Positions 6,101 through 57,842 of a stretch of DNA of 60,760 bases are shown here, in pieces. The stretch is from the IMG/VR virus record IMGVR_UViG_3300030060_000709, positions 1 to 60,760 of that record. One strand, written 5' to 3'. The position numbers were made by a program, and so were the translations under genes. The notes under the pieces are model-generated. The model worked only from the letters and a program-made list of their open reading frames with translations, searched no databases and was not told the DNA's origin. Position 1 is the first letter of the stretch, and the number at the start of each line of letters is the position of its first letter. Source of the stretch: a virus.

Positions 6101-9100
6101 TGGTCAAGAACAAGGAATGTTTAGCGCATCTATACAAACAATGATGGGTGCAATGGGATTTAGTTCAGCAGCAGACAAACTAACGCTTGAAAAAATATTT
6201 GGTAAAAAAGCCATTAAAGAAATATCTAAAGTAGCTGATGGCACAGTTTGGAAACAAATAAAAAGTTATGCAGAACGCACAGGGAAAAATTTTACTACCG
6301 ATGTAAGAGAATTAGCTAATTCATGGTTAAAAGAAGCCTTTGGAGAAGGTGTAGAAGAAGGAGCACAAACAGATAATCTAAATAAGCAGCTTCTTAATTT
6401 AGACCCAGATAATGTTACAGGTATAGATAGACCTAAAGATGCTTTCGCTTCTGCAACGCTTGGAGCAGTTTTAGGTCTTGAGTCTTCTTCTCTTATGACA
6501 TCATCTATGTGGGCGGTAGATACATCGTTAAATTTAGCAGAAGCAGGAATTGAGATACCTTATATATTAAGAGAAAATTATATTCAAGGAGCTTATAAAA
6601 ATTCTGTTACTACGCCTAGTGGTGAAGTACTAGAAGGAGAATATATACCTGCTAGAGCAAATTCTGAAAACAGTATTGCTACTAATGCAGTAGTTTTATT
6701 TAATCCTCAAGTTAACAATGCACTAACACTTAATTCTGACGGCACTCCTGTATTTACTGAAACTGAAGTAATTCAAGTATTAGATAACGTAGGAATAACC
6801 ACTGATAGTTCTCCTCGTGTATATACAAGTATATTAAACGAAATTGATGACGAAAATTATATTAGTCCTTTTGAAGCAAAAGAGGTATTTGCAGATGAAG
6901 ATTATGTACCTACAGAAGCAGAAGTAGATCAGTTTATAGGTAATACTTTTGGTGATAGCACTATCGGTCAAGGAATATATGAATATGTAGATCCTCGTCA
7001 GTTAACTGAAGAAGAACTTGATTTAATTATAGGAGATATAGATGTAACACTGACTGCCGAACAAAGAGCAGAACTTATACGTCAGTATACCGAACCTTTA
7101 GATAACCAAACTAGAGTTCAAAATTTTATAGATAGCTTAAATTTAGAGCCTGAACCAGAGCCTACTACCTATACTGCTGGTGAACTGGTTGGTCCAGATG
7201 AACAAGGCAGATACCGTATTGCAGGTGAGGACGGTGAAACACTAAGTGAAGAATTCTACGATAAAGATGGTAATCCTTACGTAGCTCCTACTACTACTAC
7301 TACTACCTATACTGCTGGTGAACTAGTTGGCCCAGATGAACAAGGTAGGTATCGTATTGCAGGTGAGGACGGTGAGACACTAAGTGAAGAATTCTACGAT
7401 AAAGATGGTAACCCTTATGTAGCTCCAGATACTACTACTACTACTACCACTACTACCTATACTGCTGGTGAATTAGTTGGTCCAGATGAACAAGGTAGGT
7501 ATCGTATTGCAGGTGAAGATGGTGAAACATTAAGTGAAGAATTCTACGATAAAGATGGTAATCCTTACGTAGCTCCAGACGATACAGGTGGTAAAGACGA
7601 TACAGGGGGTAAAGATACAGACGATACACCTACTACCACCACACCTACTCCTGCTACCACAAGTATTCCACAGTTTAGTAAAGAAAAAGACTATCTTGAA
7701 GGGGATGTTGTTACTGATGTAAATGGAGTTCTTTATAGAGCAGATAGACTTGTAAACAAAAATACTGCTGGATTAGGTAATGATTATTATTGGCAACGAA
7801 TAGTTACTATAGACTACGATCCCAATCTTGAGTATAGACAAGGTGATATTGTAAATCGAAATGGTGTTTATTATAGAGCCAAAAGCGAAATAATTGCTAA
7901 CAGTGCTGGATTAGGTAATACAGAGTATTGGGCACCAGTACCAATTTCGGGTAATGCTAGAAACTTTACAAATTTAGATAGAGACACAGGTGCAGATACA
8001 GATGCAGATCCAGTAGGTACAGATGCAGATCCAGTAGGTACAGGTGTAGATCCAGATACAGGTCTTACAGAAGATCAAATAAAACAGATAGTGCAGGGAG
8101 TGTTAGACGGTCTACCTGCTAGTATATCCACTGAAGATATGCAAAATGCTATAGCAACAGCATTAGCCAATCTACCTGCTGGTATATCCACTGAAGATGT
8201 GCAAAATGCTATAGCAACAGCATTAAATAACGCTGATTTATCTACCCTAACAGAGGCACAAGTACAAGGTATTGTAAATAACGCTGTAGAACAAATAACA
8301 GGTGATATAAGTGATGTACAAGGCACTGTAGATAGTATTACAGATCAAGTAACTAAAGCAGAAGAAGCAGGAATAGCAAGGGACGAAGCCTTAGAAGGTG
8401 CTATAGATCAGGTTGCCACAGACTTAGGATTAACCAGAACACAATTACTAGAAGCTATAGGTGAAACAGAACAGACGCTACTTAGTAGATTGGGTGAAGT
8501 AGAGACAGAACTTTCTAGTGATATACAGTTAGTATCAGAGTTTGTAGGTAAACCTGCCCAACAAGTAACGCAAGATGACATAGATTTTGTTGCAGATGTT
8601 ATAGCTCAACAAGAAGCAACGACAGAATTAGCAGTTCTCACTGAACAGCAATTACAGTATGATGTTAATCAAGATGGCGTGGTTGACATAAATGATCAAG
8701 TCATGTTAGAACAGGCTATGGCAGGGCAAGATGTTGCATTACAGGGACGTTTTGCCCCCACAGGTTTATATGAACAGGCTGCACAGACACAACAAGATAT
8801 AGAAACAGCCCAAGAGTTAGCTACACAACAGGCAATACAAACACAACAGCAGATACAAAGCACTGCTGCTGAACAAACAAGACAAAGAAGAGAAGATCAA
8901 TTTTTAAGAGATTTGTTGCTTGAAGAACCACAAACAGCAACAACGCAACAGATGGGTGTAGCTAATATACCGTATTTATACGATATAAGTGGGCAGAGTA
9001 TATTTGCACCTACAAACAGAACGCAGTTGTTTTCGCCATACGGGGATAGTAACGTGGTGCCAATAACACCACAGAACCAACAAAATAAACCACAGTTAAG

Positions 9101-30323: not shown

Positions 30324-30347
30324 AAAAAAAGGGAGCCGAAGCTCCCT
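30324..30347 (-). terminator. rho-independent terminator (minus strand)
   Basis: Stem GGGAGC/GCTCCC with a four-base TTCG loop (minus-strand reading) followed by a run of seven T. It ends the unit that contains the tas gene, the guide array and the 86-aa gene, and separates it from the replication operon. Confidence 0.88.
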
Positions 30348-30379
30348 CAAAAGTGCTGATTGTTATTGGAGAAACATTA

Positions 30380-30640
30380 TCAGCTAGGTCGTAAACCGTA
30401 AACCAAGTATTCGTTTTCACGCAGTCTTTTACCTATACCATCCACCGCACGTACCCAATCGGCTTCTTTCTTGCTCGTAATATATAGAACTGCCAAACGT
30501 CCTTGCATCCACTCTGGGAGTTTATCTATCGAATCATACGCTCCCAAAAGTTCGTTGTCAATACATTCCATACCAATACATGATATATCGACACGTTTAG
30601 TATTATTGTCTATTACTACGTAATAAGCACTGTTGTCCAT
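30380..30640 (-). CDS. hypothetical protein downstream of the TIGR array (86 aa)
   Basis: I place the start at the ATG at 30640 because it has an AGGAG ribosome-binding site seven bases upstream, not at the in-frame ATG 16 codons earlier, which has none. The protein begins MDNSAYYVVIDNNTKRVDIS and contains LPEWMQGRLAVLYITSKKEADWVRAVDG. It appears to be a small alpha/beta protein of unknown family. It is transcribed in the same direction as tas, immediately after the array, and ends before a terminator. Confidence 0.7.
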   Translation of the reverse strand: MDNSAYYVVIDNNTKRVDISCIGMECIDNELLGAYDSIDKLPEWMQGRLAVLYITSKKEADWVRAVDGIGKRLRENEYLVYGLRPS

Positions 30641-30655
30641 GCTATTCTCCTGTTT

Positions 30656-30673
30656 GTTATAACATGTTATAAC
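30656..30673. promoter_or_regulatory. 18-bp perfect palindrome at the distal end of the array
   Basis: GTTATAACA followed by its exact reverse complement TGTTATAAC, 3 bp before the first array box and about 15 bp upstream of the ATG at 30640. It could be an operator, a promoter element for the 86-aa gene, or an RNA hairpin marking the end of the guide precursor. Confidence 0.55.
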
Positions 30674-30676
30674 TTT

Positions 30677-31552
30677 TGACTCGTTCAATCAGACTGGTTT
30701 TCTTGAACTTCTTGACTCGCTTGCTCGAACTGGTTTTCTCCTGCGGCATGACTCGCTTTGTACTCGTTGGTTTTCTAAACTTCCATGACTCGCTAACACT
30801 ATTTGGTTTTCTACATAAATGTGACTCGCTTTTGACCGTTGGTTTTCTAGAGTGTTGTGACTCGCTTGATCAATCTGGTTTTCTCCCTAATCCTGACGCG
30901 CTATTCGGTCATGGTTTTCTTCCTTTTTGTGACTCGCTTTTTTGCCTAGGGTTTCTCGTTATTGATGACTCGCTAACTGGAAATGGTTTTCTTGTCCTCG
31001 ATGACTCGCTTGATTTTTAATGGTTTTCTCACCATCTTTGACTCGCTTACCGACTCTGGTTTTCTCCAAATGGTTGACTCGCTTTCCAATTTTGGTTTTC
31101 TGTTTAACGCTGACTCGCTTCATTGAGGTGGTTTTCTAATTCTCATTGACTCGCTCATTTGCCGTGGTTTTCTCCACTGGTGTGACTCGCTTTGCTTTGC
31201 TGGTTTTCTTGTTCCATGTGACTCGCTCATGGGAAATGGTTTTCTTCCTTGCCCTGACTCGCTTTTTGGTTATGGTTTTCTCAAAATCTTTGACTCGCTC
31301 ATCCACGTTGGTTTTCTTGGGAACCCTGACTCGCTTGGCCTAGCTGGTTTTCTTCCTTTTTGTGACTCGCTTACCGACTCTGGTTTTCTCTAAATGGTTG
31401 ACTCGCTTTTTCATTTTGGTTTTCTTTAATAGAATGACTCGCTCCACGCGGCTGGTTTTCTCCACATGGTTGACTCGCTTTCCTTCCTTTGGTTTTCTGC
31501 GTTAATATGACTCGCTCGTCCATGTTGGTTTTCTTTCCTAACTTGACTCGCT
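30677..31552. repeat. TIGR array: 24 units of two boxes and two 9-nt spacers, 36-bp period
   Basis: Read on the plus strand, each unit is box A TGACTCGCT, a variable 9-mer, box B TGGTTTTCT, and a second variable 9-mer. There are 24 complete units plus a final box A at 31544-31552, three bases from the tas stop codon. Unit starts run 30677, 30713, 30749, 30786, 30822 and so on to 31508. The period is 36 bp, except for three units of 37 bp where the first spacer has 10 nt (units 3, 10 and 23). Boxes are nearly invariant; the exceptions are TGACTCGTT (unit 1), TGACGCGCT (unit 7) and AGGGTTTCT (unit 8). All but a few of the 48 spacers are unique. This is the layout of tandem interspaced guide RNA arrays, processed to 36-nt tigRNAs carrying two spacers. 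The transcribed strand is not proven; co-transcription with tas would read the minus strand. Confidence 0.95.
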
Positions 31553-31555
31553 TGG

Positions 31556-32419
31556 TTATGCGACCTTGTGGTGTATGCCCAACTTGGCTTTGCTGTACTC
31601 GTCTGCGACAGGTAGACCTTCCAGTGTTCGCCATGCTGTGTACAGATCCACAAGGAACCGCTTGACAGTATAGCGTATCGCCATGTTGTTTATGTGTGCC
31701 TTGGTTTTCTCAGCGTGAACTGGCATGTGTTGTATGCGGCTCTTGTAATTATCGTAGACCTCACGGTACTTACCATTGGTCTTAACAAACGAAGAACCCA
31801 AAACACCAATCAATTTAGTCTTCATAAAGGGATTGAACGATATACCTTTCTTGGTCTGCTCCTTACCCTCTGAATCCAAATAAGTCTGATCCACCAGATG
31901 TTCTTTTATGCGAGACCGACCCTTATCACCCACGACATCAAGCCCTGCGTATGCCCATAATGAACTCGCATACTGCGCTTTGTGAATGTCGAAGCCACTA
32001 ATTATGACAGCCGCCATCGTTGGGCCGACACCTTTCACATCTTCCAAGAAATGCTTGTAGATCGGAAACTTCTTGACCGCATAGGTGATCTGCTTGAGTG
32101 CGTTCTCTTCTGCCGCCACCAGATCGAAATACTGCTGTATCAATGAGAACTCACTGTACTCCGAGATCAACCCATCTTCCTTGAATCGACGTGGAGTCAT
32201 GGTCACAATGCCATCGGTAATCTTCTTGTAACTTGTTCTAAGATTACTCAGTAACAACTTGGCATCAGTGTCCAGAGTCTCCTCCGACTTGCTTGGTTCC
32301 TGACCAATCTTGATCTTGAAGTTTGCTACTACATTATTACCTACTCTGATGCGTGTCTTCTGCATACTATAGAACCCATTGACTGCTGCTTTTAACATTG
32401 CACTTTGAATATCACTCAT
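31556..32419 (-). CDS. tas: Tas protein (TIGR-associated, Nop/IS110-like domain, no nuclease domain seen)
   Basis: 287 aa from the ATG at 32419, chosen because GGAGAAAGG precedes it and it overlaps the upstream stop by 8 bp; an earlier in-frame start adds 26 poor residues. Residues 55-130 are helical. Residues 128-161 (VKGVGPTMAAVIIS...LWAYAGLD) form the helix-hairpin-helix-like Transposase_20 core shared by IS110 transposases and Nop-domain proteins. The C-terminus (AHINNMAIRYTVKRFLVDLY, 241-260) is basic. No DEDD/RuvC acidic tetrad and no HNH motif is visible, and there are no insertion-sequence ends. The guide array begins at its stop codon. Known Tas proteins bind DNA through tigRNAs; this one would be a nuclease-less (TasA-like) form, so binding or regulation is more likely than cutting. 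Confidence 0.9.
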   Translation of the reverse strand: MSDIQSAMLKAAVNGFYSMQKTRIRVGNNVVANFKIKIGQEPSKSEETLDTDAKLLLSNLRTSYKKITDGIVTMTPRRFKEDGLISEYSEFSLIQQYFDLVAAEENALKQITYAVKKFPIYKHFLEDVKGVGPTMAAVIISGFDIHKAQYASSLWAYAGLDVVGDKGRSRIKEHLVDQTYLDSEGKEQTKKGISFNPFMKTKLIGVLGSSFVKTNGKYREVYDNYKSRIQHMPVHAEKTKAHINNMAIRYTVKRFLVDLYTAWRTLEGLPVADEYSKAKLGIHHKVA

Positions 32420-33614
32420 TTCCTTTCTCCTCGTCGTTAATGTATATAAAGTATAAGTCCTCGTCGTGTCTGAACCCCACGTCCTCCACGTTGTCACCCA
32501 CCTCTAGCATCGACAACACACTAAGTGAACCACGTAAACTCTCGCTTATGTTGTCATTGGTAAATGTCATCGGGCGGTTGTCATCGTCAGTCAACTCCCA
32601 TATTTCTCTTTCATAAGCGGTGGCGTTAACGATGCGGTGTAAACTATATCTCTGCACACCATGTCTATCTTCGTAGACCCGCACTGCATCCATGTCGTAG
32701 GTCTTGCCACGTATTTCTTCGTAGTGTTTGTACACGTCACGCAACTCTCTCACCCTCTGTTCAACCACGTTGGATAGAAACTCATGCCCTGTGTCTAGCA
32801 GATTGTAAAGCTCTTTTGCCAACTTAGAATTGGCGCTACCGATAAGCTCCCTAACCTTTTCAAGTTTGTCATCCTTATCGTGCGCTCTATCGCGTCTATG
32901 CTGATTGGCTTTGTAACCTGCATCATCTATGGTTTGTCTCAATGATTCTGCCTCAGTAAACGGTCTGAACTCTGCTGAAGCACGGCTTACTGCTGCTTCT
33001 TTTGCACCATAAAATGCCATGTGATAAATCTTATTCTCTGGGATGGATTTATTATTGATGATGTGTCTTGAGTACAACACGTACTTCTTCTTGCCTGTCT
33101 TGGTTTTTGAGTAATCACCGTAAGCAATCCACCCAAGGCAATACATATCTTGTGGACGGTACACATGGACTTTAGCAGGTGCTTCATAATTAAAATCTCT
33201 TACCCATTCATACTCGTCATAGTCATAGATTTTATCTAGGTCTACCTTACCATCCCTCTCGTGAAATATATCTCTGGGGTAATTTACGCGACCCAAGTCA
33301 CCGAAGAAACTAAGTGCCCCACCAAACGATTTATGTAGTGAGCGGATATAGTTCTTCAAACAGTTTGTGCTACGGATAACTCGACGCATATTTTCCAACT
33401 TTGATTCACCACGCCTTATGTCGTGCCTTTCTAAACGGTCGTTGTAAGAATACGCAGATACGTAAAACTTACTTTCGTCGTGTACTTCCATATCTTCTGA
33501 GTCAATAAGTATTTGCTTGCTACCTTTCTCAACCAGTTCAGATACTTGTATTGGTCGGTGTTCGCCATACAATTTATAACCTGTTTCCTTACCTGTCAGC
33601 TTTCTAAACTTCAT
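32412..33614 (-). CDS. hypothetical protein upstream of tas (400 aa)
   Basis: Directly upstream of tas with an 8-bp overlap, so the two are translationally coupled. The sequence is mixed alpha/beta and charged. It has a SFGGALSFFGDLGRVNYPRD segment near residue 95, an aromatic-rich block RPQDMYCLGWIAYGDYSKTK, a long helical middle (EAESLRQTIDDAGYKANQHR onward) and a basic-acidic C-terminus. I know of no characterised family. The coupling raises the possibility that it works with the TIGR system, but it may be a passenger of the same early operon. Confidence 0.75.
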   Translation of the reverse strand: MKFRKLTGKETGYKLYGEHRPIQVSELVEKGSKQILIDSEDMEVHDESKFYVSAYSYNDRLERHDIRRGESKLENMRRVIRSTNCLKNYIRSLHKSFGGALSFFGDLGRVNYPRDIFHERDGKVDLDKIYDYDEYEWVRDFNYEAPAKVHVYRPQDMYCLGWIAYGDYSKTKTGKKKYVLYSRHIINNKSIPENKIYHMAFYGAKEAAVSRASAEFRPFTEAESLRQTIDDAGYKANQHRRDRAHDKDDKLEKVRELIGSANSKLAKELYNLLDTGHEFLSNVVEQRVRELRDVYKHYEEIRGKTYDMDAVRVYEDRHGVQRYSLHRIVNATAYEREIWELTDDDNRPMTFTNDNISESLRGSLSVLSMLEVGDNVEDVGFRHDEDLYFIYINDEEKGNE

Positions 33615-34560: not shown

Positions 34561-34710
34561 CTAGCCTTGTTGTATCCGCTTCCATGCGGCTTCGATTTCT
34601 TCCTTGGTGTATGGGTTAGCCGCACCATTGAACCACGGAGATGTGGCGTACTTCACCAAAAACTCCATGATCGCCTTTGCTTCACCCCATTCCATTCTCT
34701 CGTCAGTCAT
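34561..34710 (-). CDS. small conserved protein (49 aa)
   Basis: A complete frame beginning MTDERMEWGEAKAIMEFLVK and ending AAWKRIQQG. Its ATG shares a base with the stop of the VWA gene (TAATG), which supports it strongly. The fold is probably two helices with an aromatic-rich loop (YATSPWFNGAANPYT). The function is unknown. Confidence 0.72.
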   Translation of the reverse strand: MTDERMEWGEAKAIMEFLVKYATSPWFNGAANPYTKEEIEAAWKRIQQG

Positions 34711-35903
34711 TACATATTCCTCGATTCAATATGAGTTACCTTGCCCACGTTAGGCTTGGCTCCCTTGTTATCCAATATTGCCCAGAGTAAAGGGCAACTC
34801 CAATCACCCCAACTACCTGCCAAGTAGCCATCAGTCAGAACAATGACTGCTTGGGGAGTGATGCGTTCTTCCTTCATGTACTCAGTGACGCACTCAACCT
34901 CTGTGCCGCCACCACCCACAGGTTTAGTAGACTTGGTGAGATTATCTATCTCGTCCATCTCATAGGTCTCGTCACCTGCTATCTTGTGACCCCAGTAGAT
35001 CAATCGCACCTTGTCTGGTTTTACTGTGGTGCATATCCCCTTGACCTCAGTGAGAAACAATGTGAGTTCACGCTGTCCGATAGACCCAGACGTATCGACT
35101 GCGAGTACAAGTTCTTCGACCTTCTCTGAGACACCACTTGGCATGTAGATACCCTGCCCAATGAATCTGCGGTTCGGTCTGTTCCATGTCGAGAAGTCCT
35201 TACCTGCACAGGTAGCGTTGATAAACTCACGTAACATCTCACGCCAATCGACTTGTGGCTTGAGCAACTCATCGAAGTCACGATCAACGTTATGTCCCAA
35301 CTTACCTGCCGACAGCGCACCTTGGCGTATGGCTTCATCGATGTCCCGTTCGAGTTGACGTTCTTCATCTTCTGATAGACCGTCAGCACCCTCCCAGTCA
35401 TGTTCGTCCAGTGGCTCGCCATGTCCACCTCCGCCACCTCCACCACCGCCTTCTTCTTGGTCTTGCTTGAGGATGTCGAATACTTGCTTGGCGTTCATGC
35501 CACGGAATCGTTCATCGATGCACCCACCATCAGGTAGCTTGGCGAACCCATCCCTGTTCTCATCTTGTATCTTGAGATTGATGACGAAATCACATGCCAT
35601 GTTTGCCAGTTTGCCATCTTGATCCCACAGATCACGCCACGTTGTAAGGTGTCGAAACAACTTGTGGTAGTTTTCGTGCAGTACCAGCCCGCGCAACTCA
35701 GCGTCAGTCAGTCCAATAATAAACTTGCGACCATACCTCTCGTCACGTCCGTTGGTATAGGCTGTTGGCACGTCATCTTCTACTGTCTTGTCACCAATCA
35801 TCAGTACACCTGCCAGTGCTGTGTACTTAGGTTCAGCCATGATAGCGACCACTGCCTTGTTCAGACGTTCTTCGCCTGTCAGTTCTCTGTTACCAATTAA
35901 CAT
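34710..35903 (-). CDS. VWA domain protein with metallopeptidase-like N-terminus (partner of MoxR ATPase)
   Basis: 397 aa. An N-terminal domain has GLVLHENYHKLFRHL, an HExxH zinc-metallopeptidase motif (H76, E77, H80), as in the DUF2201-type putative metallopeptidase domain. A linker with a run of nine Gly (152-160) follows. The C-terminal von Willebrand factor A-like domain has the MIDAS motif DTSGS (D270, S272, S274) and a later VLTDGY. Paired with the MoxR-type ATPase encoded 11 bp upstream. In cellular systems MoxR-VWA pairs act as chaperone-like remodelling machines; their role in phages is unsettled. Confidence 0.88.
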   Translation of the reverse strand: MLIGNRELTGEERLNKAVVAIMAEPKYTALAGVLMIGDKTVEDDVPTAYTNGRDERYGRKFIIGLTDAELRGLVLHENYHKLFRHLTTWRDLWDQDGKLANMACDFVINLKIQDENRDGFAKLPDGGCIDERFRGMNAKQVFDILKQDQEEGGGGGGGGGHGEPLDEHDWEGADGLSEDEERQLERDIDEAIRQGALSAGKLGHNVDRDFDELLKPQVDWREMLREFINATCAGKDFSTWNRPNRRFIGQGIYMPSGVSEKVEELVLAVDTSGSIGQRELTLFLTEVKGICTTVKPDKVRLIYWGHKIAGDETYEMDEIDNLTKSTKPVGGGGTEVECVTEYMKEERITPQAVIVLTDGYLAGSWGDWSCPLLWAILDNKGAKPNVGKVTHIESRNM

Positions 35904-35914
35904 CTTGTCACCTC

Positions 35915-37012
35915 CTACTTCTTGTCTGCACTGAACAGATAGTTGTTAGCTACCGCCCAGTCTGTGAATTTACCATTAGCTACAACCACCTTGCGATGTT
36001 GGTATGTCTCGCGTATGGCTTGGTTGACAAACATACCCTGCGCTTCAGTGTCGAGCCGCACCATGTAATCCATCCATGCGTCAATCCACTTGTTACTCAT
36101 CTCCATCAGTGCCTTAGTCACCACCATGCAAACTGCCGCTGTACTGTCAGGCACAACTGCGGTCTTGGGGTTGTTCTTGAGTGACTCAAGTGATGGTAGC
36201 TGATCGCCAATCTTTACAAACGCCATCAAGTCCATCGCTGTACGCTCACCAACAGCACCCATGAGTAGTGCAGTCAGGGTGTGATCGTCTAGGTTGTGAC
36301 GTTGCTTGAGTACGTCAGATGCAGCATGACCACTGCGCGGTGTGAAGAATGACCTACGCTCTTGACGTGGGTGGAAAATGTACAGATTGTCATCGGGATC
36401 TTTGACCTGTGTGAAGTCTTGGAACAATGCGGTCTTGTACTCTTTGACGAACCCAAGCAATGCCAGATCAAAGTCGTTGCGTATGCCATAGGCTATGTAG
36501 TCATCAGCCGTTGGCTTCTTCATACGGACTAGGACAAGTCTATTCCGTGCATGGGGTGGTAGCATGTCACCCACGTTCTCAGCGCCAAGGTTAGTGGTGG
36601 CAAATATTATCGAGTCAGGGTGTAGTGTGTAACCACCGATCTTGCGCTCCAACATAAGTCGTAGCAGTGAGTTCTTGACGGCAGTGTTAGCCTTGCCATA
36701 CTCGTCAATCATCAAGAGCACTGGTTTGTGGTGATGTGCGCCCAGTTCTTCGTTGGTCAAATACTGAACGTACCCAGAGCCGTCATCCATGTGGGCGATG
36801 TTAGGTATGGTGATATCACCCAAGTCCTTGGTGGTACAGTCAAAGTAGCAAGGCATGTGCGTGGCTTTGACTGCGGCTAGCATCGGTAGCATCGATGACT
36901 TGCCAGTGCCCATGTGACCTTCGACCAACATAGTCCGTAGGTGACCTGTGTGTAACAGTGCGTTAACACACTGATCGATTGATAATGCGTAAATATCTTT
37001 TGCGTCTGACAT
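35915..37012 (-). CDS. MoxR-type AAA+ ATPase
   Basis: 365 aa. Walker A is EGHMGTGKSS (residues 31-40), Walker B is LLMIDEYGKA (D103, E104), sensor 1 is IIFATTN, and PPHARNRLV provides the arginine region. The arrangement matches MoxR-family ATPases, and the next gene is its VWA partner. It starts 18 bp downstream of a 25-bp palindrome. The probable role is ATP-driven remodelling of a protein target chosen by the VWA partner, possibly with the upstream 302-aa protein. Confidence 0.9.
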   Translation of the reverse strand: MSDAKDIYALSIDQCVNALLHTGHLRTMLVEGHMGTGKSSMLPMLAAVKATHMPCYFDCTTKDLGDITIPNIAHMDDGSGYVQYLTNEELGAHHHKPVLLMIDEYGKANTAVKNSLLRLMLERKIGGYTLHPDSIIFATTNLGAENVGDMLPPHARNRLVLVRMKKPTADDYIAYGIRNDFDLALLGFVKEYKTALFQDFTQVKDPDDNLYIFHPRQERRSFFTPRSGHAASDVLKQRHNLDDHTLTALLMGAVGERTAMDLMAFVKIGDQLPSLESLKNNPKTAVVPDSTAAVCMVVTKALMEMSNKWIDAWMDYMVRLDTEAQGMFVNQAIRETYQHRKVVVANGKFTDWAVANNYLFSADKK

Positions 37013-38127: not shown

Positions 38128-38463
38128 TGTAACACATTGTAACACATTGTAACAACATGAGATGTCGTAAGTTATTGATAATTAAGTAGTGTTACAATGT
38201 TACGTTTTTTCGGGAATTTTGAGGGGAAATATTTACGCGAGGGTGGGAGGGAGATTTTTGTTACAAAGCAAAAAAACCCAACGTAACCATAAACATTCTA
38301 TATAAAATGTTACATTATAAATATATAGATAGAATAGTACTAGATGTTACAGTTTATTAAGTAGTATCTGGTACTCATTGTTATGATGTATCACAATATA
38401 TCACTAGATAATAATGTAACATTATTTTGTTACATTGTGTTACATTGTGTTACGTTTGTTACA
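38128..38463. other. candidate replication origin with TGTAACA iterons
   Basis: An AT-rich stretch without genes. TGTAACA occurs at 38128, 38138 and 38148, exactly 10 bp apart. The reverse complement TGTTACA/G occurs at 38428, 38438, 38448 and 38457 (spacing 10, 10, 9). The two phased clusters face each other about 300 bp apart. Further single copies lie at 38190, 38198, 38259, 38308, 38345 and 38415. Helically phased iterons around an AT-rich core fit an origin or a large operator. No initiator gene is identified. Confidence 0.5.
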
Positions 38464-38468
38464 TTAGG

Positions 38469-55694: not shown

Positions 55695-57842
55695 ATGGCA
55701 ACTTATGTAAATGATTTACGATTAAAAGAAATAGGTACAGGCGAATCTTCAGGTACGTGGGGCACCGAAACGAATGTTAATTTAGAATTAATAGGCGATG
55801 CTCTAGGGTTTGCAACTAAAGCAGTCGCTAATGCTTCTACAGATACTTTGACCATTCCTGATGGCACAGCAACAAATGGTGAACCTCGTGCTATGTATCT
55901 AAAACTCACAGGTGGTGGTCAGGCATGTACGGTAACGCTTGCTCCAAATACTGTGTCTAAACTTTGGTTTATAGAGAATGCCACTAGCTACACTCTTTCG
56001 TTTACTCAAGGATCTGGAGCAAATGTAGATGTTCTCGCAGGACAAACTAAAGCCATTGCTTCTGATGGAGGAGGATCGGGCGCGATTCTTTACGATGTCT
56101 TTACTGATCTTTCTGTAGCAGGAGATTTTTTTGCTGCAAATACTATTCAGCCCGGAGGGGATACAGCTTCTGGTGACGCTGCCGCAATAGGATATACTTC
56201 TGCTGAAGGTATTATAGTAACAGGTCAAGGCTCTACATCAGATGTAACAATTAAAAATGATGCTGATGGTACAGTTCTTACCATAGCTACTGGCACTACT
56301 AATGTAGATATAGTAGGCGATGTTACAGCTTCTACTGTAAACGCAGATGGTGACACTGCTGCTGGTGATAATGCCGCAATGGGCTACACTGCCGCTGAAG
56401 GTTTAATTCTTACAGGTCAAGGTAGCACTAACGATGTAACCATTAAGAATGATGCCGATGCAGATGTATTGACCATTGCAACAGGCGGTACAAATGTAGA
56501 TATAGTAGGAGATCTTACCGCAGCGTGTTTTATACCTGACGGGGATACAGCCTCTGGTGATGCAGCAGCGATAGGTTACACTGGTGCAGAAGGTATTATT
56601 GTCACTGGTCAGGGTTCTACATCAGATGTTACTTTAAAAAATGATGCAGATGGTACAGTTCTTACCATACCTACGGGCACAACTAATGTTGATGTTGTTG
56701 GAGACTTAACTGCTGGAACATTAAATGCTGATGGAGATACGTCTTCTGGTGATGCAGCAGCGATAGGTTACACTGGTGCAGAAGGTATTATTGTCACTGG
56801 GCAGGGTTCTACATCTGATGTAACGCTCAAAAATGACGCTGATGGTACAGTTTTAACTATCCCTACAGGTACAACTAATGTTGATGTTGTTGGAGACTTA
56901 ACTGCTGGAACATTAAATGCTGATGGTGATACAGCCGCAGGAGATGCTGCTGCCATAGGCTACACAGCCGCTGAAGGTTTAATTCTCACTGGGCAGGGTT
57001 CAACTAATGATGTAACAATTAAGAATGACGCAGATACCGCAGTCTTTCAAATACCTACAGGTACAACAAACGCTACAATTGCAGGAACGCTTGGTGTGGC
57101 GGGTGGCTCAACAAATGGAGTAGCCATTAGTCAGGGTGCAATTTCTATAAAAAATGGTGGAGCGCAGTCTTACATTGACTTTTATTGTGAAAGCTCAAAC
57201 GCTCACTATGCAAGGATATTAGCTCCTGCACACAGCGCATTTAGCGGCAACATCACGCTGACATTACCAGCCACCACGGATACGTTGGTGGGTAAAACAA
57301 CGACTGATACGTTGACCAATAAAACTCTCACCACACCAACTCTCACAACGCCCATAGCAAATGCAGGGATACAGCTTAAAAATGGTGCGACAAGCGCAGG
57401 ATTTATTGAGTTTTTTGAAGACTCAGATAACGGTACAAACAAAGTTACATTGATTGGCCCTGCTTCTACCGCAGATATAACGCTAACATTACCTAGCTCT
57501 GATGGTGATGACGGACAGGTTTTGACAACTAATGGTTCTGGAGTGTTGTCATTTTCTACCGTTGGTGGAGCCTACAACGCATGGTTGGTAAAAACAGATT
57601 CATATACTGCTCTGGCGGGAGACCAACTTATTTGCAATAAATCTAGCGCAATGACTATCACACTTCCTGCTTCAGCAAGTGCTGGAGATACTGTTACCCT
57701 TAAAAATGTTGGAAATGGGTTAGTCACTGTAGGTCGTAATTCGCAAAACATTGATTCGGTAGCAGCAGATGGTAGCTTACCAAAAGGTAATGCCGTGCAA
57801 TTAGTTTATGTTGATGGGACGATTGGGTTCGTAAGTCTGTAG
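55695..57842 (+). CDS. tail fibre protein with five tandem 64-residue repeats (715 aa)
   Basis: The N-terminus MATYVNDLRLKEIGTGESSG is typical for virion-attached fibre proteins in this group. Residues about 155-474 are five copies of a 64-residue repeat (GDTASGDAAAIGYTSAEGII and on), probably forming an elongated beta-helical shaft. The C-terminal part has IDFYCESSNAHYARILAPAH and a distal VGRNSQNIDSVAADGSLPKG domain, possibly for receptor contact. It is the first of a fibre-chaperone series. Confidence 0.8.
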   Translation: MATYVNDLRLKEIGTGESSGTWGTETNVNLELIGDALGFATKAVANASTDTLTIPDGTATNGEPRAMYLKLTGGGQACTVTLAPNTVSKLWFIENATSYTLSFTQGSGANVDVLAGQTKAIASDGGGSGAILYDVFTDLSVAGDFFAANTIQPGGDTASGDAAAIGYTSAEGIIVTGQGSTSDVTIKNDADGTVLTIATGTTNVDIVGDVTASTVNADGDTAAGDNAAMGYTAAEGLILTGQGSTNDVTIKNDADADVLTIATGGTNVDIVGDLTAACFIPDGDTASGDAAAIGYTGAEGIIVTGQGSTSDVTLKNDADGTVLTIPTGTTNVDVVGDLTAGTLNADGDTSSGDAAAIGYTGAEGIIVTGQGSTSDVTLKNDADGTVLTIPTGTTNVDVVGDLTAGTLNADGDTAAGDAAAIGYTAAEGLILTGQGSTNDVTIKNDADTAVFQIPTGTTNATIAGTLGVAGGSTNGVAISQGAISIKNGGAQSYIDFYCESSNAHYARILAPAHSAFSGNITLTLPATTDTLVGKTTTDTLTNKTLTTPTLTTPIANAGIQLKNGATSAGFIEFFEDSDNGTNKVTLIGPASTADITLTLPSSDGDDGQVLTTNGSGVLSFSTVGGAYNAWLVKTDSYTALAGDQLICNKSSAMTITLPASASAGDTVTLKNVGNGLVTVGRNSQNIDSVAADGSLPKGNAVQLVYVDGTIGFVSL
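56157..57116 (+). repeat. five 192-bp tandem repeats in the tail fibre gene
   Basis: Repeat starts at 56157, 56349, 56541, 56733 and 56925, each 192 bp and in frame. Copies 3 and 4 are nearly identical in DNA, which suggests recent duplication. Copy number is likely to vary between related genomes. Confidence 0.9.

What the first reader, a model, noticed from the sequence alone, without database searches (positions are those of the whole stretch)
30677..32419. A complete TIGR-Tas RNA-guided system in a phage
Seen: 24 units with a 36-bp period, each with boxes TGACTCGCT and TGGTTTTCT alternating with two different variable 9-mers, adjoining the stop codon of a gene with an IS110/Nop-type core (VKGVGPTMAAVIIS, LWAYAGL). 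Known: TIGR-Tas systems of phages pair a Nop-domain Tas protein with tandem interspaced guide RNA arrays processed to 36-nt tigRNAs that use two spacers to bind DNA. The period, the two-box layout, the protein and the neighbourhood all agree. A CRISPR array would have one longer repeat and 25-40-bp spacers.
Basis: partly seen in the sequence, partly recalled or inferred. Interest (0 to 1): 0.97.

Follow-up and report, generated by a model that had tools for sequence, protein, structure and literature searches.

The report
TIGR-TasA guide-RNA system in phage
A phage known only from an environmental virus contig carries a complete, nuclease-free TIGR-Tas system (a snoRNA-like protein gene joined end to end with 24 dual-guide RNA units); it belongs to a family described in 2025, and about 50 related loci show how its guide units are inherited, duplicated and reshuffled.

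Summary
Window 30677-31552 holds 25 edge boxes and 24 loop boxes alternating with 9-nt spacers (three of 10 nt), i.e. 24 units, directly behind the stop of a 287-aa gene on the minus strand (31556-32419). The protein passes NCBI's TIGR-Tas cut-off, matches TasR and TasH, and its predicted fold is nearest TasR/TasH; it has no RuvC or HNH domain, so it is a TasA. Edge-box pairs covary across ~600 units (G-C, A-U, G-U kept, A-C avoided), which fixes the transcribed strand as the tasA strand. Comparison with ~50 related loci adds that spacer A-loop-spacer B is inherited as one module while unit order is scrambled; arrays contain diverged unit duplicates; arrays begin at the tasA stop codon and often run into the next gene's start; TasA is under strong purifying selection while spacers turn over. 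No natural target was found in the own genome, in related phages, or by seven exact-pattern scans. A depletion of spacers from their own genome (p about 0.01) is suggestive only.

The parts
30677..31552 (-). TIGR array: 25 edge repeats (AGCGAGTCA on the minus strand) and 24 loop repeats (AGAAAACCA), 24 tigRNA units with two 9-nt spacers each (three spacers of 10 nt)
31556..32419 (-). tasA: 287-aa Tas protein, Nop-type RNA-binding core, no RuvC or HNH nuclease domain
   Evidence: NCBIfam NF052498 122.5 bits, cut-off 100; PDB TasR 9mty 9e-19 and TasH 21kl 3.5e-12 by profile; AlphaFold2 model, Foldseek 4.5e-8 to TasR/TasH
31544..31558 (-). Junction: tasA stop codon (31556-31558), 3 bp, then the first full edge repeat; in many relatives the TGA stop itself lies in a truncated first edge repeat (TTGAGCCA)
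32412..33614 (-). Upstream gene of unknown function (400 aa), overlapping tasA by 8 bp; probable same transcript; not found in related loci
30656..30673 (.). Perfect 18-bp palindrome GTTATAACATGTTATAAC between the last edge repeat and the next gene; function unknown
30380..30640 (-). Gene downstream of the array (86 aa, unknown), with AGGAG ribosome-binding site
30329..30348 (-). Terminator-like stem GAGGGAGCTTCGGCTCCCTT followed by a T run; plausible end of the tasA-array-86-aa transcript
   Evidence: consensus match only

Best explanation
This is a dual-repeat TIGR-TasA system of a tailed phage. tasA and the array are one transcription unit on the minus strand. TasA, as a dimer, binds the precursor RNA at edge and loop boxes; a host RNase cuts inside each edge repeat, giving 24 RNAs of about 36 nt of the form AGTCA-spacerA-AGAAAACCA-spacerB-AGCG. 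Spacer A pairs with one strand and spacer B with the other strand of a DNA site that reads A + revcomp(B), and the complex opens and bends that site. Without a nuclease it should act by occupancy, blocking transcription or replication. The most likely role is interference with DNA that is not the phage's own: competing mobile elements or host defence loci. Shown here: locus anatomy, family membership, predicted fold, strand, pairing in the boxes, A-loop-B as the inherited unit. Inferred from characterised relatives (PMC12045711): processing, dimer, dual-strand DNA binding. Inferred only weakly: the target class (about 0.5).
For: Array anatomy. Family and structure. Loci related to tasA at 92 down to 32% identity mostly carry a dual-repeat array beside the gene; none turned up in 85,000 bacterial and archaeal genomes with the close-relative patterns used. 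Box pairing across 617 distinct units: edge 2-7 G-C 251, A-U 184, G-U 142, A-C only 19 (about 94 expected if independent); edge 3-6 C-G 533, U-G 39, U-A 26, C-A 15. G-U tolerated and A-C avoided shows that the RNA is made from the tasA strand. Unit inheritance: 356 shared units between arrays that are not near-copies, only 22 half-shared, while the following unit is conserved in 46 of 326 cases, as expected if edge-A-loop-B-edge is the functional RNA. Array starts at the tasA stop and abuts the next start codon in relatives. TasA is 78-92% identical to its nearer relatives while four-fold sites are saturated (0.32-0.39), so the protein is under strong purifying selection. Acidianus tailed spindle virus has the same layout: gene B343 ends 2 bp before an annotated repeat region.
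Against: No RNA data. No natural target found (scans 30, 31, 50, 51, 79, 80, 81). Box D reads AG here and not UG as in TasR. The AlphaFold2 model is only moderately confident (pLDDT 76; residues 60-85 below 50). A few loci with diverged Tas (L029/L143, L139, L147) showed no recognisable dual-repeat array in the scanned flanks.
Confidence: 0.9

Rival explanations
1. The tigRNAs act on the phage's own genome: TasA binds its own sites as an RNA-guided repressor or replication/recombination aid.
For: TasA has no nuclease, so self-binding would not be lethal; the protein is strongly conserved.
Against: No site in the phage's own genome matches a unit in the A + revcomp(B) geometry with up to 2 of 18 mismatches, and the 3-4 mismatch counts do not exceed control geometries; spacers are if anything depleted in their own genome; arrays of phages with about 90% identical TasA share no unit with this one.
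Confidence: 0.15
2. The guides target host chromosomal genes (RNA-guided silencing of host or defence genes).
For: A nuclease-free effector fits silencing; one unit (GAAGGACAT/TCCTTACAA and variants) is spread over about ten arrays, as a conserved target would allow.
Against: Host unknown; one exact scan of 85,000 genomes for a duplicated unit gave five unrelated scattered hits, about chance; high spacer turnover argues against mostly conserved targets.
Confidence: 0.3
3. The protein is an IS110-type transposase with bridge RNA beside an unrelated repeat.
For: Weak Pfam Transposase_20 match below cut-off; IS621 in the fold list.
Against: NCBIfam Tas model 122.5 bits versus IS110 15.6; no catalytic N-terminal domain; repeats accompany the gene in about 50 loci.
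Confidence: 0.01
4. CRISPR array, tandem coding repeat or simple satellite.
For: Regular repeat with variable parts.
Against: Two different 9-nt repeats alternate; no cas genes; 10-nt spacers break any frame; spacers differ between relatives while boxes are kept and covary.
Confidence: 0.01

Closest known systems
TIGR-TasA (Flavonifractor plautii FpTIGR, Faure et al. 2025, PMC12045711)
   Same: Solo Nop-domain protein without nuclease; dual alternating repeats, 9-nt spacers, 36-nt unit, array beside the gene
   Different: FpTasA sequence was not compared here. In this phage group the array is intercistronic, begins at the tasA stop codon and is followed by another gene and not directly by a terminator
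TIGR-TasR (Thermoproteota TaTasR, PDB 9mty)
   Same: Same fold (Foldseek 4.5e-8) and sequence homology (3.3e-13; 9e-19 by profile); repeats end in CCA; A-rich loop repeat; box C/D pair plus one more pair in the edge repeat
   Different: TasR has an N-terminal RuvC nuclease, absent here; box D is UG there and AG here
TIGR-TasH (PDB 21kl, 9vzx, 9w02-9w04)
   Same: Homologous Nop core
   Different: TasH carries an HNH nuclease
Acidianus tailed spindle virus B343 + repeat region (KU645528)
   Same: Homologous protein (25% identity, 6e-7) with a dual-repeat array starting right after its stop codon
   Different: Archaeal virus; different repeats (TGCACAcAAGCAA and TCAATAA)
IS110/IS621 transposases and box C/D Nop5
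   Same: Shared RNA-binding core (IS621 E 4e-4; Nop5 3pla weak)
   Different: No catalytic domain, no bridge RNA, no methyltransferase partner

Membership tests
TIGR-Tas (dual-repeat) | Tas protein of the Tas/Nop family | tested here: met
   NCBIfam NF052498 122.5 bits over cut-off 100; TasR/TasH hits in PDB sequences
TIGR-Tas (dual-repeat) | Nop-like fold nearest Tas structures | tested here: met
   Foldseek: top 11 hits are TasR/TasH, E down to 4.5e-8, TM 0.52-0.62 on a pLDDT 76 model
TIGR-Tas (dual-repeat) | Two distinct alternating 8-12-nt repeats with about 9-nt spacers next to the gene | tested here: met
   also in relatives
TIGR-Tas (dual-repeat) | Box C/D motifs shared between edge and loop repeats, with pairing | tested here: met
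   Both repeats start AG and end YCA/CCA; edge pairs 2-7 and 3-6 covary. Box D is AG, not UG
TIGR-Tas (dual-repeat) | Array begins and ends with truncated edge repeat; terminator follows | tested here: inconclusive
   Truncated edge at the tasA stop in relatives; in the window both ends have near-full edges; the next gene follows and the terminator-like stem lies behind it
TIGR-Tas (dual-repeat) | Processing to 36-nt tigRNAs bound by Tas | not testable with these tools
   needs small-RNA sequencing
TIGR-Tas (dual-repeat) | Dual-spacer binding of opposite DNA strands | not testable with these tools
   no targets found; needs a binding assay
TasA subtype | No RuvC or HNH domain | tested here: met
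   287 aa; residues 1-115 predicted all helical, no nuclease domain hit
TasH / TasR subtype | N-terminal HNH or RuvC nuclease | tested here: not met
IS110 transposase | Full IS110 family profile with catalytic domain | tested here: not met
   IS110 model 15.6 bits against cut-off 140; only the Nop-like core matches Transposase_20, below cut-off
CRISPR-Cas | Single repeat type of about 23-47 bp with cas genes | tested here: not met
   no cas match among the neighbouring genes tested

The most novel reading that the evidence does not exclude
In this phage group TIGR arrays evolve without a CRISPR-like adaptation step: whole A-loop-B units are duplicated, drift by point changes, are reshuffled and are exchanged between phages, under selection against matches to the phage's own genome. 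That would answer how TIGR arrays grow, which the discovery paper calls an enigma, and would mean that TasA guides are aimed at foreign DNA.
Probability: 0.45. Interest if true: 0.72.

Novelty: new member of a known kind. Interest (0 to 1): 0.52.

Why it matters
TIGR-Tas systems were described in 2025, and what they do in nature, what they target and how their arrays grow are open. About 40 distinct arrays in one phage group give comparative material on unit inheritance and turnover, fix strand and pairing rules from sequence alone, and supply nuclease-free TasA proteins for testing as small programmable DNA binders.

Tried and rejected
Target search: all distinct spacer pairs in the A + revcomp(B) geometry (gap 0-2) against own and related phage contigs (687 kb): no exact hit, 1 hit with one and 20 with two mismatches against means of 1.05 and 29.7 for shuffled pairs; extended to 1.6 Mb of held sequence, no excess over the reverse geometry. 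Exact scans of IMG/VR for six patterns gave 21, 4, 0, 10, 2 and 6 contigs; the 21 fall into five unrelated sites (11 contigs are one virus), and no other unit matches the contigs found, so I read them as chance. One scan of 85,000 genomes gave five unrelated hits. A period-3 pattern in spacer drift (coding targets) was not seen: 24 of 81 substitution pairs against 25% expected. Recent horizontal transfer of tasA as the reason for its high identity was considered and rejected: synonymous sites are saturated. Self-avoidance: own-genome 9-mer matches 91 against 117 expected, permutation p 0.008, controls at ratios 1.04 and 0.93, but with very heavy masking 54 against 64, p 0.14; kept as suggestive only. 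Rfam and tRNA scans of the window: nothing.

Full report
What is there. On the + strand, 30677-31552 alternates TGACTCGCT (25 copies, 23 exact) and TGGTTTTCT (24 copies, 23 exact) every 18 bp, with 9-nt variable stretches between them, three of them 10 nt. Exact TGACTCGCT occurs nowhere else in the window. The window is an IMG/VR virus record of 60,760 bases. Its capsid and terminase genes are nearest to Planktothrix phage Pag-Yong1, Pelagibacter phages HTVC023P/HTVC027P and Roseobacter phages CRP-901/902, so it is a tailed phage of that wider group; the host is unknown.

The protein. ORF 31556-32419 (-), 287 aa, passes NCBI's model NF052498 (TIGR-Tas) with 122.5 bits (cut-off 100) while the IS110 model gives 15.6 bits. 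By sequence it finds only TasR (9mty, 3.3e-13) and TasH (21kl, 3.8e-6) in the PDB, and 9e-19 and 3.5e-12 with a profile of 21 relatives. The AlphaFold2 model (pLDDT 76) has TasR and TasH as its eleven best fold matches (4.5e-8 to 4.7e-5), then IS621, with Nop5 far below. The first 115 residues are predicted all-helical and no nuclease domain is found, so this is a TasA. NCBI's label 'endonuclease' for the family would mislead here.

Orientation and RNA. On the tasA strand the repeats read edge AGCGAGTCA and loop AGAAAACCA. The A-rich loop repeat and the CCA ends match the published TasR repeats (PMC12045711). Over 617 distinct units from about 50 loci, edge positions 2 and 7 are G-C 251, A-U 184, G-U 142, A-C 19; positions 3 and 6 are C-G 533, U-G 39, U-A 26, C-A 15. 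Covariation with G-U allowed and A-C avoided is what base pairing in an RNA of this strand gives; on the other strand G-U would be the mismatch A-C. Cutting between edge positions 4 and 5 would give exactly 36 nt. The cut site itself is inferred.

Context. In relatives the array starts at the tasA stop codon, often with the TGA inside the truncated first edge repeat (TTGAGCCA), and the last edge repeat runs into the ribosome-binding site or start codon of the next gene (GCGAGACATGG in L014 and L142). tasA itself overlaps the upstream gene by 8 bp. The array is therefore intercistronic and very probably part of the tasA transcript. Processing would cut that mRNA at or just behind the tasA stop; any feedback on tasA expression is speculation. 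The neighbouring genes are not conserved between relatives. Acidianus tailed spindle virus, found independently by the protein search, has the same gene-then-array layout.

Evolution. Relatives at 92-32% identity were fetched from viral contigs, none from 85,000 prokaryote genomes with the same close-relative patterns. TasA (69-92% identical to the twelve contigs compared, 78% or more in most) is more conserved than the capsid protein (61-68%) or terminase (32-50%) of the same phages, but its four-fold sites are at 0.17-0.39 identity: this is purifying selection on TasA, not recent transfer. Units behave as modules: between arrays that are not near-copies, 356 units are shared with both spacers, 22 share one spacer only, and the next unit is conserved in 46 of 326 cases (pairs of related arrays are counted repeatedly, so these are not independent events). 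Arrays hold 28 diverged duplicate units against 5.7 in shuffles; in the window ACCATTTAG/GAGTCGGTA and ACCATTTGG/GAGTCGGTA are such a pair. A few units are shared exactly, odd loop repeat included, between phages whose tasA synonymous sites are saturated (GAAGGACAT-AGCAACCCG-TCCTTACAA in L008, L014, L030), which points to exchange of units between phages. The window's own array shares no unit with any other. I infer growth by duplication, drift, shuffling and exchange; no adaptation gene is seen near the locus.

Targets and role. No natural target was found by any route. Own-genome matches to spacers are fewer than expected (91 against 117, p 0.008; 0.14 under heavy masking). With a nuclease-free effector, high spacer turnover and no self-targets, interference with foreign DNA by occupancy is the reading I prefer (about 0.5), ahead of host genes (0.3) and own genes (0.15).

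Verdict. It is a genuine TIGR-TasA system and a new member of a known kind. The added value is the comparative set of arrays.

Noticed in passing
30656-30673: Perfect 18-bp palindrome GTTATAACATGTTATAAC between the array end and the next gene.
   Followed up: no
34710-37012: Gene pair on the tasA strand: AAA ATPase (PHROG 1297) and DUF2201 metallopeptidase/VWA protein, a MoxR/VWA-like pair, upstream of the two unknown genes that precede tasA.
   Followed up: no
38128-38154 and 38424-38465: Short tandem repeats of period 10 (TGTAACACAT; ATTGTGTTAC) in the gap between the oppositely transcribed halves of the genome; could be iterons of an origin or regulator sites.
   Followed up: no
7162-7615: Near-identical 150-bp tandem repeats inside a 2017-aa ORF.
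   Followed up: no
56160-57035: 4.6 copies of a 192-bp repeat inside a 715-aa ORF; relatives match parts of it at 48-62%.
   Followed up: no
L009:1097-1985, also L010 and L011: Array split in two sub-arrays separated by about 280 bp.
   Followed up: no
L144:2940-4900, L145:2940-4820, L146:4500-5000: Very large phage contigs (225-285 kb) with Tas proteins of 34-37% identity carry long, degenerate arrays upstream of the gene, with AGTGTATCA/AGTCACCCA-like boxes.
   Followed up: partly
L153:2926-3651: Microcystis phage Mvi-JY20 has a Tas relative annotated as hypothetical (30% identity, 241 aa); no repeat is annotated beside it.
   Followed up: partly
L152:6287-6576: The Acidianus tailed spindle virus record also annotates a second repeat region as 'possible viral CRISPR locus', 1.5 kb beyond the TIGR-like array.
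   Followed up: no
spacer position 9 in all arrays: The last base of each spacer, next to the AG box, is rarely C (about 2-5%), so it may belong to the box.
   Followed up: partly
spacers of all arrays: Both spacers are purine-rich (about 60%) on the transcribed strand, which is odd if A and B pair with opposite DNA strands of ordinary coding sequence.
   Followed up: no
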